Assembly (NCBI GenBank): GCA_023957275.1
Contig: JAMLHF010000021.1
Span: 1 to 63,197 of the forward strand
DNA: 63,197 bases
From: Lentimicrobium sp.
GTDB lineage: Bacteria > Bacteroidota > Bacteroidia > Bacteroidales > Lentimicrobiaceae
Reading direction: 5' to 3'
Part shown: one piece after another, positions 33,586 through 36,884 of the stretch
Layout of the letters: each line of letters opens with the position of its first letter
Position numbering within the stretch: the first letter of the stretch is position 1
Position numbers and translations under genes: made by a program
The notes under the pieces: model-generated
What the model was told of the DNA's origin: nothing
What the model saw: only the letters and a program-made list of their open reading frames with translations
The model's database searches: none

Positions 33586-33978
33586 TTAAATAAAATGATC
33601 AGCCTGTTTCAGGATGATCAGGAGTTTAGGTGCAAAAATAATGATTCCGGCGATTACGGCAATAACCGAAGCCCACAAAACTGCACCGGCGGCAATATCT
33701 TTGATTAGCCGCACAGAATTGTTGTATTCCGGTTCAATTACATCGCATAGTTTCTCGAAAGATGTGTTGATTAATTCCAGGGAAATAATCAGCGCAAAAA
33801 GAAGGAGGATGGTGATCCATTCCTGCTGGCTGAGTCCGAGCGCAAGTCCGGCAGCTGTAACCAGGATAACCGCTGCAAAATGGATTCTGAGGTTTATTTC
33901 GGTTTTGGTTGCCTGAATAATCCCCGATGTGGCGCATCGGAATGATTTAACACTCTTTGTCAGAAATGAAAGATTCAT
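33586..33978 (-). CDS. dgkA: Diacylglycerol/undecaprenol kinase family membrane protein
   Basis: The 130 residues have three membrane helices (about 33-52, 55-70 and 96-120) and the family signature ELINTSFEKLCD with KDIAAGAVL. Gram-positive and Bacteroidota members usually phosphorylate undecaprenol rather than diacylglycerol, which would serve lipid-carrier recycling. It is 14 bp upstream of the kinase-like gene. Confidence 0.88.
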   Translation of the reverse strand: MNLSFLTKSVKSFRCATSGIIQATKTEINLRIHFAAVILVTAAGLALGLSQQEWITILLLFALIISLELINTSFEKLCDVIEPEYNNSVRLIKDIAAGAVLWASVIAVIAGIIIFAPKLLIILKQADHFI

Positions 33979-34265: not shown

Positions 34266-34607
34266 CGGCTCCAGCGGAGTCGTTTGTCTATAGAAAACGC
34301 AGATATTTTTTTGATTTTCGACTCCAGAGTAGTCGTATGTTTATAGAAACCGTGAACCATTTGTACATCTTCCGACTCCGGAGGAGTTGCATGCATATAG
34401 AAACCTCTCGGTTCTTCTCTGGATTTCCCGACTCCGGAGGAGTCGCATATTTACAGAAACCGTGAATCATTTGTTCATCTTCCGACTCCAGCGGAGTCGT
34501 ATGCTTACAGAAACCCAGAATCATTTGTATATCTTCCGACTCCGGAGGAGGGGTTTGTTTATAGAGACCGTGGCTCGTCTCAGGATTTCCCGACTCCGGA
34601 GGAGTCG
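34266..34607. repeat. Seven 54-bp repeats with a 17-bp palindrome
   Basis: Copies of CGACTCCGGAGGAGTCG (or close variants) start at 34266, 34319, 34373, 34429, 34483, 34537 and 34591, so spacing is 53-56. After each comes a conserved stretch near CATGTTTATAGAAACCGTG, then a linker of two kinds (AATCATTTGTTCATCTTC or a CTCGxxTCTxxGGATTTCC type). The arms GACTCC/GGAGTC give a stem in each unit. The linkers repeat, so this is not a CRISPR array. The region from the dgkA start to 34265 shows no gene. Confidence 0.85.
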
Positions 34608-34672
34608 CATGTCTATTTATTTCATGGATCAATGCATTAATCTGGCAGGTCGCATATTTTCCGAATAGAGCC

Positions 34673-35401
34673 ACCACAAAAGGCTACCCTTTCGGATAGC
34701 CTTTGTGTTATAAGGTTGGCGACGACCGGATTATATCTCGTCGGTTTATCGCGTTTTTCAGCGATAAGCTGACGAGACTCCCACCTGATTGGCAGTATCT
34801 CGTCATCTCGTCAGACGAAGGTGAAGCAATTTGAAGATAATTTTCAATGTCTGACGGGACGACGAGACGCCGGCGGGCTTAACTTCTCTGTGATTCCCTC
34901 CCCCTCAGACCGATATGTTTAAAACCACAAAAGGCTACCCTTTCGGATAGCCTTTGTGTTATAAGGTTGGCGACGACCGGATTATATCTCGTCGGTTTAT
35001 CGCGTTTTTCAGCGATAAGCTGACGAGACTCCCACCTGGTTTGGCAGTATCTCGTCATCTCGTCAGACGAAGGTGAGGCAATCTGAAGATAATTTTCAAT
35101 GTCTGACGGGACGACGAGACGCCGGTGGGCTTAACTTCTCTGTGATTCCTTTCCCCTCAGACCGATATGTTTAAAACCACAAAAGGCTACCCTTTCGGAT
35201 AGCCTTTGTGTTATAAGGTTGGCGACGACCGGATTATATCTCGTCGGTTTATCGCGTTTTTCAGCGATAAGCTGACGAGACTCCCACCTGGTTTGGCAGT
35301 ATCTCGTCATCTCGTCAGACGAAGGTGAGGCAATTTGAAGATAATTTTCAATGTCTGACGGGACGACGAGACGCCGGCGGGCTTAACTTCTCTGTGATTC
35401 C
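34673..35401. repeat. Three tandem 251/252-bp units, last one truncated by an IS
   Basis: Units start at 34673, 34924 and 35176 (each ACCACAAAAGGCTACC) and are nearly identical; unit 3 stops at 35401 where the IS begins, missing about 26 bp. Each unit holds three hairpins: AAAGGCTA/TAGCCTTT (terminator-like), a 42-nt hairpin (34736-34777 in unit 1) and a 70-nt hairpin (34798-34867). The hairpins begin TCTCGTC and end GACGAGA. Confidence 0.9.
34714..35395 (-). pseudogene. 5S rRNA 3'-half segments with two hairpin inserts, three copies
   Basis: Read on the minus strand, each unit contains ACAGAGAAGTTAAGCCCGCC (loop B-helix II of 5S rRNA), then TACTGCC-GGTGGGAG (helix IV region) and GGTCGTCGCCAACC (3' helix I), in the order and polarity of a Bacteroidota 5S rRNA. 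Insert A (70 nt) replaces the CCGATGG region and insert B (42 nt) sits after GGGAG. The terminator-like hairpin follows as it would a real 5S gene. The 5' half of 5S rRNA is not recognisable in any unit. Copies: 34714-34891, 34965-35143 and 35217-35395. A working 5S rRNA from these units is unlikely; they may be relics or a different RNA. Confidence 0.6.
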
Positions 35402-35434
35402 GGATCAAGATCAAAACCTGTGGATTAAATCAAA

Positions 35435-36370
35435 TTAGGCATAGAGTTTAGATAACCGAAAGAGGAAAAAATTAACATCACTGACACCTCTATATTGTTG
35501 TCTGAAAGCTTTAATCTTAGCATTAAAAGATTCAGCACTTGCATTGGTGCTTCGGTTATCGAAGTAGTTGAGGATTTTCCTATAATGATTCATTATTGTC
35601 TTGGAGATCGTGTTAAAGGCTTTAAATCCTGCTTTTTCGACCTTTTCATGCCATTTAGCGAGTCTGGTATATGCATAGATTTTCTCAGTTGTGGAAGTGT
35701 ATATTCTTGATAAGCTTTGGGTTAATTCATAGGCCAATTTGATATCAGGGAAGCGTTCAAATAGTATTGCCGCTCTATCAGCCTGTTGTTGGGTCCAGTT
35801 CTGCTCACTTTTATAAAGCAAGTATCTGCTTCTGGCAAGAAGTTGCTTAAGGGTATCTCCGTTGGGTAACACTTCTGGAATAAATATCTGTTTGTACATT
35901 TTTGCTTTCTCAATAGCGTCATTCTCCTGATCCAATGCTTCCCACCGGTGTTTAATGCGTATTTCCTGAAGGGCTTCTGTTGCTAATTGCTGGACATGGA
36001 ATCTGTCAATAACAATAGTCGCTTTGGGGAAACACTTTCGCACGATAAGATTCATGTTCCCGGCCAAATCCAAGGTAACCTCAATCACCTTATTGCGTTC
36101 TTTTGCCGGAAGTTGAGACAGCAACGGAATGATTGTTTCGGAGTTGGTGCCTTCCAGAATAGCTACCAGTGCACCTTTCTTGCCTTTGGCTGATTTATTG
36201 GTGATGATGGTATAAAGTTCACCCTGAGATAAGGAGGTTTCGTCAATCGAAAGATATGGCCCCAGATTCTCTGGAAATATCAAACCCTTACTTGCATCTT
36301 TGCAGTGTTCCCATTGACTGAAATCGCTCAATTTGTTGCGATAATAACGTTGCAACTTCTTGCCTGGCAC
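35435..36370 (-). CDS. IS transposase, catalytic part (ISL3-like DDE)
   Basis: The 311 residues contain the catalytic signature regions LSIDETSLSQGELYTII, TIVIDRFHVQQLATEAL and NASAESFNAKIKAFRQQY (DDE). The listed start is a GTG (36370), but the same frame is open further upstream, back to a stop near 36430, reading SADTQAHSIQTIGSFYGV, so the natural protein is probably a fusion with the N-terminal ORF by a +1 frameshift. The enzyme would move the surrounding element. Confidence 0.88.
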   Translation of the reverse strand: MPGKKLQRYYRNKLSDFSQWEHCKDASKGLIFPENLGPYLSIDETSLSQGELYTIITNKSAKGKKGALVAILEGTNSETIIPLLSQLPAKERNKVIEVTLDLAGNMNLIVRKCFPKATIVIDRFHVQQLATEALQEIRIKHRWEALDQENDAIEKAKMYKQIFIPEVLPNGDTLKQLLARSRYLLYKSEQNWTQQQADRAAILFERFPDIKLAYELTQSLSRIYTSTTEKIYAYTRLAKWHEKVEKAGFKAFNTISKTIMNHYRKILNYFDNRSTNASAESFNAKIKAFRQQYRGVSDVNFFLFRLSKLYA

Positions 36371-36398
36371 TCCATAAAACGACCCTATGGTTTGAATG

Positions 36399-36764
36399 CT
36401 ATGAGCCTGGGTATCGGCCGATTTCTTTTAAAAAAGCAGCAAAATCCTTTGTGATTCGCGTCCCCTTAGCTACAAGATCCCAGTCTCTGAAAACTACTTT
36501 GCCCGTATCTTCATTGAGCCAGCGTCGTCGTGTTATATGAAGAAATACATTATATCCCCTGATAGGAAAATCCTGGATAGTCACTTCATCGAAAAAACCT
36601 TTGGAAATAAGCTTATTGCCTCGATACTCATCGGGTTTGGTGTTCAACTCTTTGAGATAAATATGAAGGTTCTCACCTTCTTTTTTATGATGGGTTAATT
36701 CAAAATAATCTTCTACAGAATCTGGTAAGATAAGTTTTAAAAGCACCTTGAAAGAGTCGTCCAT
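36399..36764 (-). CDS. IS transposase N-terminal region (frame 1)
   Basis: The 121-residue product resembles the separately annotated N-terminal part of ISAon1-family transposases: FPIRGYNVFLHITRRRWL, DWDLVAKGTRITKDFAAFL. It ends EIGRYPGS. The frame used by the catalytic part opens only about 40 nt before this stop, over TTTTTTAAAAG (36434-36424, minus strand), which is a good place for ribosome slippage. It probably makes the DNA-binding part of the full transposase. Confidence 0.8.
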   Translation of the reverse strand: MDDSFKVLLKLILPDSVEDYFELTHHKKEGENLHIYLKELNTKPDEYRGNKLISKGFFDEVTIQDFPIRGYNVFLHITRRRWLNEDTGKVVFRDWDLVAKGTRITKDFAAFLKEIGRYPGS

Positions 36765-36884
36765 GGCAAAAAATTAGTTTCTGCAAAGATCTCTATTAAC
36801 TCTTTACTCCACAACTTTTGTGCATGATCCTCATATTCTGATGCTGCAGTGTGCTGCTGCAAAAATAACACCTGAGGATTCATT

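What the first reader, a model, noticed from the sequence alone, without database searches (positions are those of the whole stretch)
34673..35401. Tandem array built from the 3' half of 5S rRNA interrupted by two hairpins
On the minus strand each 251/252-bp unit shows ACAGAGAAGTTAAGCCCGCC, TACTGCC, GGTGGGAG and GGTCGTCGCCAACC, in 5S rRNA order, followed by a terminator-like hairpin. Two inserts (70 and 42 nt) break helix IV/V regions, and the 5' half is not recognisable. Insertions in 5S rRNA are rare (Halococcus morrhuae has a 108-nt insertion). Three nearly identical copies suggest recent amplification or selection.
Basis: partly seen in the sequence, partly recalled or inferred. Interest (0 to 1): 0.8.

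Follow-up and report, generated by a model that had tools for sequence, protein, structure and literature searches.

The report
Broken 5S rRNA copies with hairpins
Three repeated pieces of a 5S ribosomal RNA gene, each missing its front half and with two internal strands swapped for hairpins, match pieces that sit at the end of a ribosomal RNA operon in a related genome; such remnants have been described in other bacteria, but here the same hairpin also marks broken transfer RNA gene copies.

Summary
The array is real: three 252-bp units (34673-35401, minus strand). Each carries 5S rRNA positions of about 43-62, 74-94 and 99-112, two hairpins where the strands of helix V/loop E would be, and a copy of the 5S terminator. 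No 5S covariance hit is obtained, but descent from 5S is plain: in a same-genus, two-contig genome (G001) a 98% identical unit follows 16S-tRNA-23S-5S-terminator, before an orthologue of the window's diacylglycerol kinase gene. These are 5'-truncated remnants of 5S, not an expanded working 5S; Stepanov & Fox 2021 describe the same kind in Peptococcaceae and Pseudoalteromonas. New here: the TCTCGTC...GACGAGA hairpin is not 5S-specific. In G000 and G001 all 32 of 32 exact sites lie in partial RNA-gene copies (5S, tRNA-Gly, -Asp, -Thr). In other genomes it occurs in tRNA-Asp and -Arg copies, RNase P RNA and 23S rRNA, but also at 11 of 66 distinct sites without visible RNA-gene context. Some tRNA cases adjoin small GIY-YIG genes. 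Likeliest reading: inert, homogenised remnants carrying a hairpin that recurs in RNA genes. The window's IS-array join is probably an assembly chimera or IS-mediated.

The parts
34673..35401 (-). tandem array of three 252-bp 5S-remnant units
35120..35143 (-). unit 2, 5S-derived block 1; the same block at 35372-35395 in unit 1 and 34868-34891 in unit 3
35302..35371 (-). unit 1, insert 1: 70-nt hairpin (19-position stem) in place of the helix V 5' strand; copies at 35050-35119 and 34798-34867
35281..35301 (-). unit 1, 5S-derived block 2 (helix IV hairpin), identical to the congener's 5S; copies at 35029-35049 and, one base shorter, 34778-34797
35239..35280 (-). unit 1, insert 2: 42-nt hairpin in place of the helix V 3' strand; copies at 34987-35028 and 34736-34777
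35217..35230 (-). unit 1, 5S-derived block 3 (end of 5S); copies at 34965-34978 and 34714-34727
35182..35207 (-). unit 1, terminator-like hairpin with the same sequence as that after the congener's 5S; unit 2 copy at 34930-34955; a third copy, read by eye, at 34679-34704
35402..36833 (-). ISAon1-family (ISL3-type) insertion sequence abutting the array; the contig join here is doubtful
33586..33978 (-). diacylglycerol kinase gene downstream of the array; orthologues follow rrn operons of congeners

Best explanation
The array is a set of non-functional 5S rRNA gene remnants of the kind found at the distal end of an rRNA operon. A segment running from inside 5S (about position 43) past its terminator was tandemly duplicated, which leaves the upstream 5S whole and puts 5'-truncated copies, each with a terminator, behind it (inferred from the layout in G001). 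In the remnants both strands of helix V/loop E were replaced by palindromic hairpins. The copies were then kept alike, and like the resident 5S, by unequal exchange or gene conversion. Behind a terminator they are probably little transcribed; any transcript would be a rigid multi-hairpin RNA without the 5S three-way junction or loop E. The hairpin belongs to a short palindrome class (core TCTCGTCA-N4-TGACGAGA) that in this lineage recurs in RNA-gene copies and in variable helices of RNA genes. Shown: descent from 5S, position behind rrn in G001, occurrence in several species of the genus, shared hairpin class. Inferred: duplication route, lack of function, conversion.
For: Congener G001 has 16S, tRNA, 23S, an intact 5S (73.7 bits), its terminator and then a 98% identical unit, before orthologues of the window's downstream genes. 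A second array lies at the end of another contig. Unit-like remnants also occur in G005, G013, G012, G006 and, degenerate, G018. All share ATCCGGTC (G001 variant ATCTGGTC) where 5S has AGTAGGTC, while tail and terminator tend to resemble the same genome's 5S. The same architecture is described as 5S pseudogenes by Stepanov & Fox. No sigma-70-like promoter was found at 34500-35600. Partial copies with the same hairpin flank tRNA genes.
Against: Unit-like sequence in seven genomes of the genus (the window's included), with a hairpin at site 2, read by eye, although its sequence is swapped (G001 units 4-5, G005, G012), could mean selection on structure. Stem differences in insert 1 are mostly G-U compatible, but 4 of 9 units carry a mismatch, of two kinds. 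One two-sided change in insert 2 between G000 and G013 (read by eye). No RNA data. The promoter scan does not cover Bacteroidota promoters (and shuffles gave 1.8 on average). The tail/terminator likeness is imperfect (G006, G013 loops differ). In the window itself no 5S or other rRNA gene precedes the array.
Confidence: 0.72

Rival explanations
1. Scars of a selfish GIY-YIG nuclease element: a small GIY-YIG gene inserts behind a stable RNA gene together with a partial copy of that gene's 3' end, and arrays without the nuclease, such as the 5S array, are decayed or non-autonomous forms.
For: Among the 30 loci that fetched, an ARAGORN tRNA lies in 10 of 20 with small GIY-YIG ORFs (two share one locus) against 0 of 10 with long ones. 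tRNA-Asp, tRNA-Val and tRNA-Met loci show tRNA, terminator or partial copies, GIY-YIG, then a partial tRNA copy with a hairpin. tRNA-Asp copies break at 38/51 in genomes of three families.
Against: No GIY-YIG gene lies on the window's contig, nor near the 5S arrays of G001, G005, G006 or G012, nor near the tRNA-Gly and tRNA-Thr arrays of G000 and G001 (positions; G013 and G018 were not in that search). 5'-side copies upstream of tRNAs are not expected from 3' insertion. No cleavage data.
Confidence: 0.15
2. A functional small RNA or decoy derived from 5S, for instance a regulator that binds a 5S-binding protein or an RNase.
For: Strong fold (z -6.2), an intact helix IV hairpin, hairpins kept at site 2 despite sequence swaps, occurrence in several species.
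Against: Loop E is replaced, no promoter-like site was found, the array lies behind a terminator in G001, the copy in G018 is degenerate, and 8 of 10 intact 5S genes read for 700 nt downstream in the genus have no unit motif there. Strong folding follows almost trivially from inserted palindromes.
Confidence: 0.1
3. A tandem terminator block that stops read-through from the rRNA operon, with the 5S parts as passengers.
For: Every unit ends in a terminator-like stem (one search lists units 1 and 2; the third is visible).
Against: It does not explain the 5S blocks or the hairpin replacements; 8 of 10 intact 5S genes of the genus lack such units within 700 nt; 5'-side copies of tRNA-Gly show no terminator by eye.
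Confidence: 0.08

Closest known systems
5S rRNA gene remnants (pseudogenes) at distal ends of rRNA operons, Stepanov & Fox 2021 (PMC7812874; RESULTS section read in two parts, plus passages)
   Same: Lack one or both 5S ends, carry large insertions in the 5S core, lie downstream of a normal 5S, sometimes in multiple copies each preceded by a terminator.
   Different: Reported there for Peptococcaceae and Pseudoalteromonadaceae; no word beginning 'Bacteroid' in the main text. Here two hairpins replace helix V strands, and the hairpin class is shared with tRNA-gene copies.
Expanded functional 5S rRNA (Halococcus morrhuae, Thermoanaerobacterium)
   Same: Structured insertion in a 5S core; Halococcus inserts next to loop E.
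   Different: The complete 5S core is kept there; here about a third of it is gone and a normal 5S exists in the congener.
E. coli tyrT 178-bp repeats and rtT RNA (recalled, not tested; the search found no paper)
   Same: Tandem units behind a stable RNA gene, each with the 3' end of that gene.
   Different: Different gene, much shorter RNA-gene part, no hairpin replacing an arm as far as I recall.
Short palindromic elements and intervening sequences inside RNA genes (Rickettsia palindromic elements, cyanobacterial RNase P repeats, 23S IVS; recalled, not tested)
   Same: Palindromes tolerated in variable helices of structural RNAs; here within RNase P RNA and 23S rRNA genes.
   Different: Here the palindrome also replaces essential arms in truncated gene copies.

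Membership tests
5S gene remnants at distal rRNA operon ends (Stepanov & Fox 2021) | lacks one or both terminal parts of 5S | tested here: met
   alignment to real 5S starts at about position 43
5S gene remnants at distal rRNA operon ends (Stepanov & Fox 2021) | large insertions in the 5S-like core | tested here: met
   70 and 42 nt
5S gene remnants at distal rRNA operon ends (Stepanov & Fox 2021) | located downstream of a normal 5S at the end of an rRNA operon | tested here: met
   met in G001; in the window itself the rRNA operon is absent and an IS abuts the array
5S gene remnants at distal rRNA operon ends (Stepanov & Fox 2021) | multiple copies, each preceded by a putative terminator | tested here: met
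   G001: terminator of 5S, then units each ending in one; in the window the first unit is cut by the IS edge
Functional 5S rRNA (RF00001) | covariance-model match | tested here: not met
   no RF00001 hit at gathering or, at 34500-35600, at E up to 10
Functional 5S rRNA (RF00001) | both strands of helix I | tested here: not met
   5' part absent
GIY-YIG-linked RNA-gene 3'-end elements | GIY-YIG gene next to the partial copy | tested here: not met
   PF01541 hits in G000 lie on contigs C68, C114, C64, C56, C93, none on C60
tyrT/rtT-type repeats | RNA released from the repeat unit | not testable with these tools
   no transcriptome

The most novel reading that the evidence does not exclude
A hairpin with constant ends (TCTCGTCA/TGACGAGA) and free loop is a mobile or templated helix cassette specific to structural RNA genes in Bacteroidales. 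It swaps in for an arm of tRNA, 5S, RNase P or 23S genes, is kept where it replaces a dispensable helix or disarms a surplus partial copy, and spreads between RNA genes, possibly with the help of tRNA-linked GIY-YIG nucleases.
Probability: 0.27. Interest if true: 0.75.

Novelty: new variant of a known kind. Interest (0 to 1): 0.52.

Why it matters
It extends 5S-remnant arrays to a Bacteroidales-type lineage and ties them to a wider pattern: partial copies of tRNA and 5S genes beside the intact gene, with an arm replaced by one recurring hairpin. That makes a testable question of how truncated RNA-gene copies are disarmed or tagged and whether a nuclease or a mobile palindrome makes them. It also warns annotators: ARAGORN called tRNA-Leu on two such fragments.

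Tried and rejected
Rfam on the array gave only chance matches below gathering, mostly microRNA families. Viral contigs hold the hairpin core in 17 stretches, in coding-like context by eye; strict RNA-gene matches beside the hairpin were 0 of 15 distinct viral sites, so phage origin was dropped. Integrase-type attachment repeats were set aside because partial tandem duplication explains both 5' and 3' copies; I did not search for integrases. A general intergenic mobile palindrome was set aside for G000 and G001, where all 32 sites (one nested in another) are in RNA-gene copies, but it is not excluded elsewhere: 11 of the 66 distinct non-viral sites have no RNA-gene context that I could see (L117, L122, L133, L141, L078, L079, L081, L272, L273, L274, L275; sorted by me; no gathering-level Rfam match in the 8 of them searched; L133 holds a group II intron). 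Literature searches with little or no use: (listings only). The GIY-YIG superfamily paper (PMC1564403, passages only) mentions tRNA only through a methyltransferase fusion in the passages shown. That I found no report of the shared hairpin rests on these listings and on the passages and RESULTS section of PMC7812874, nothing wider.

A loose flank test (12 nt or more, gap up to 8) gave 51 of 66 non-viral against 5 of 15 viral sites; I rely on the strict one (15 nt or more, gap up to 4): 46 of 66 against 0 of 15 (sites assigned by me from the order of the listing). Several sites belong to one array, and a few are nested, so they are not independent. The reference set held one ARAGORN call made on a fragment (tRNA-Leu of L085) and no RNase P RNA. 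The tRNA flank survey is modest: G001 4 of 35, G025 3 of 20, G032 0 of 31; antisense control 0, 1, 0; mismatched-locus control 20 of 1106, 0 of 352, 7 of 876. It covered only tRNAs that ARAGORN found in the stretches I chose (one search counts 43 tRNA matches for G001) and it missed the mutated tRNA-Asp copies.

The odds did not need changing.

Full report
OBSERVATION. The array is at the stated place: period 252, 2.9 copies, 98% matches. Read on the minus strand, a unit holds ACAGAGAAGTTAAGCCCGCC(GGCG), a 70-nt hairpin, TACTGCCAAACCAGGTGGGAG, a 42-nt hairpin, TATAATCC, GGTCGTCGCCAACC and a terminator-like stem, with a few substitutions and one missing base among the three. The unit folds far better than shuffles, z -6.2, though inserted palindromes make that almost inevitable.

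WHAT IT COMES FROM. Rfam finds no 5S in the window at gathering, nor at 34500-35600 at E up to 10, and none in the window's draft genome, so the covariance test alone would reject the idea. A same-genus genome in two contigs, G001, settles it. Its locus L064 reads 16S, tRNA, 23S, 5S (73.7 bits), terminator, then a unit 98% identical to the window's in the same orientation. The unit aligns to real 5S from about position 43 to its end, with exact blocks of 20, 21 and 14 nt. Insert 1 stands where 5S has the 5' strand of helix V and insert 2 where it has AGTAGG, so both strands of helix V/loop E are gone while the helix IV hairpin is intact (helix names from general knowledge of 5S).

PLACE AND SYNTENY. 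Downstream of the array both genomes have a diacylglycerol kinase and a BadF-type ATPase gene, and 5S genes of several congeners lie before the same genes. In the window no rRNA gene precedes the array. A 1432-bp ISAon1-family element ends exactly at it. The left flank of that element is orthologous to one locus of G001, and the orthologue of that locus's right flank sits on another contig of the window's genome that begins inside the IS. The contig is therefore chimeric across the IS or rearranged through it. That affects the neighbourhood upstream, not the array.

DISTRIBUTION. Besides G000 (3 units) and G001 (two loci, several units, gaps of N inside), the DNA search of 60 genomes, G000 included, returned unit-like sequence in G005 and G013 at contig starts. 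Reading around weaker hits showed remnants in G012, G006 and a degenerate one in G018. All share ATCCGGTC in place of AGTAGGTC, with ATCTGGTC in the G001 variant, which suggests one origin. Tail and terminator mostly resemble those of the same genome's own 5S, which suggests conversion; the likeness is imperfect in G006 and G013. Of 10 intact 5S genes found in the genus, 2 have a unit-like tail within 700 nt downstream (G001 C1, G018 C49) and 8 do not (G018 C99, two in G008, G013 C1, G016, G011, G009, G006 C187). A motif search of 295 genomes of the order found the exact unit tail only in G000; four one-mismatch hits lie in unrelated context. That sample held only four members of this genus (G000, G008, G009, G018).

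THE HAIRPIN CLASS. Insert 2 is swapped for another hairpin in two G001 units, in G005 and in G012, so at that site a hairpin rather than one sequence is kept. The constant-ended form, TCTCGTC...GACGAGA, was searched in 19 congeners: 31 forward sites against 6 for the backwards control (spacer 20-50) and 35 against 8 (spacer 2-19); sites can overlap and arrays count several times. In G000 all 11 sites, and in G001 all 21 (one nested), lie in partial RNA-gene copies: 5S, tRNA-Gly, tRNA-Asp, tRNA-Thr. Examples: four 71-72 bp copies of tRNA-Gly 1-22, hairpin, 36-47 upstream of the intact gene in the window's own genome; four 126-bp copies of the tRNA-Thr 3' part behind the intact gene in G001; tRNA-Asp copies broken at 38/51 in genomes of three families. 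The hairpin also lies within RNase P RNA genes of G006 and of G136, another family, and within a 23S rRNA gene of G006, where G001 has a similar but different stem. In 295 order genomes the 20-nt form occurs in 4, the backwards control in 1; outside the genus its six sites are five in tRNA-Asp copies and one in RNase P RNA. Over all distinct sites held, 46 of 66 non-viral and 0 of 15 viral sites abut an RNA-gene match under strict criteria. Of the other 20 non-viral sites, 9 are RNA-gene cases that the test missed (RNase P RNA absent from the reference set, nested sites, degenerate tRNA copies) and 11 have no RNA-gene context that I could see, among them a repeat family of G013 and coding-like places.

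GIY-YIG LINK. Small GIY-YIG ORFs in these and other genomes of the order often sit behind tRNA genes, with a partial tRNA copy behind them: among the 30 loci fetched, an ARAGORN tRNA lies in 10 of 20 small-ORF loci (two overlap) against 0 of 10 long-ORF loci (layouts). None is near the window's 5S array. The link is a lead for the tRNA cases and not shown for 5S.

MECHANISM (inferred). Tandem duplication of a segment that starts inside an RNA gene and ends beyond its terminator leaves the first gene whole and adds 5'-truncated copies behind it. Duplication of a segment that starts upstream and ends inside the gene adds 3'-truncated copies in front. Both layouts are seen beside intact genes. 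The hairpin then replaces an arm, which would stop the copy from competing as a tRNA or a 5S. How the hairpin gets there is unknown: templated spread, a mobile palindrome, or selection among chance palindromes. Stem evidence is weak: in nine units insert 1 varies mostly by G-U-compatible changes, with mismatches in four units.

KNOWN OR NEW. [quoted passage not shown] All four features are met, two of them through G001 rather than the window. The array is therefore a variant of a described kind. What I did not find described, within the searches listed in Tried and rejected, is the shared arm-replacing hairpin across 5S and tRNA copies.

Noticed in passing
window 34319-34550: A separate 54-bp-period repeat (4.3 copies) of palindromes like CGACTCCGGAGGAGTCG just downstream of the array; similar palindromes lie at the same place in G001 and G005.
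   Followed up: no
window 35402-36833: ISAon1-family IS; one G001 copy (C2:363k) and the copy in JALHHH010000022.1 (L031) lie beside terminator-like sequence. The contig join at this IS is doubtful.
   Followed up: partly
G000:C91:97875-98108 (L129, L134): Four tandem 5'-half copies of tRNA-Gly(ccc), each with the hairpin, upstream of the intact gene in the window's own genome.
   Followed up: partly
L085 (G018:C23): About ten tandem units of the tRNA-Thr(cgt) 3' part with the anticodon arm replaced by a hairpin; ARAGORN calls two of them tRNA-Leu.
   Followed up: partly
L094 (G020:C3): tRNA-Val with several degenerate copies and two near-identical GIY-YIG ORFs between them, in another family.
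   Followed up: partly
L140 (G006:C98) and L270 (G136:C43): The TCTCGTC hairpin occurs inside RNase P RNA in two different families.
   Followed up: partly
L133 (G018:C65): The hairpin lies downstream of a group II intron match, in what looks like its protein-coding part; described only.
   Followed up: no
L078, L272, L273, L274 (G013): Four copies of a 48-nt hairpin with the same TCTCGTC/GACGAGA ends in a repeat context without visible RNA gene.
   Followed up: no
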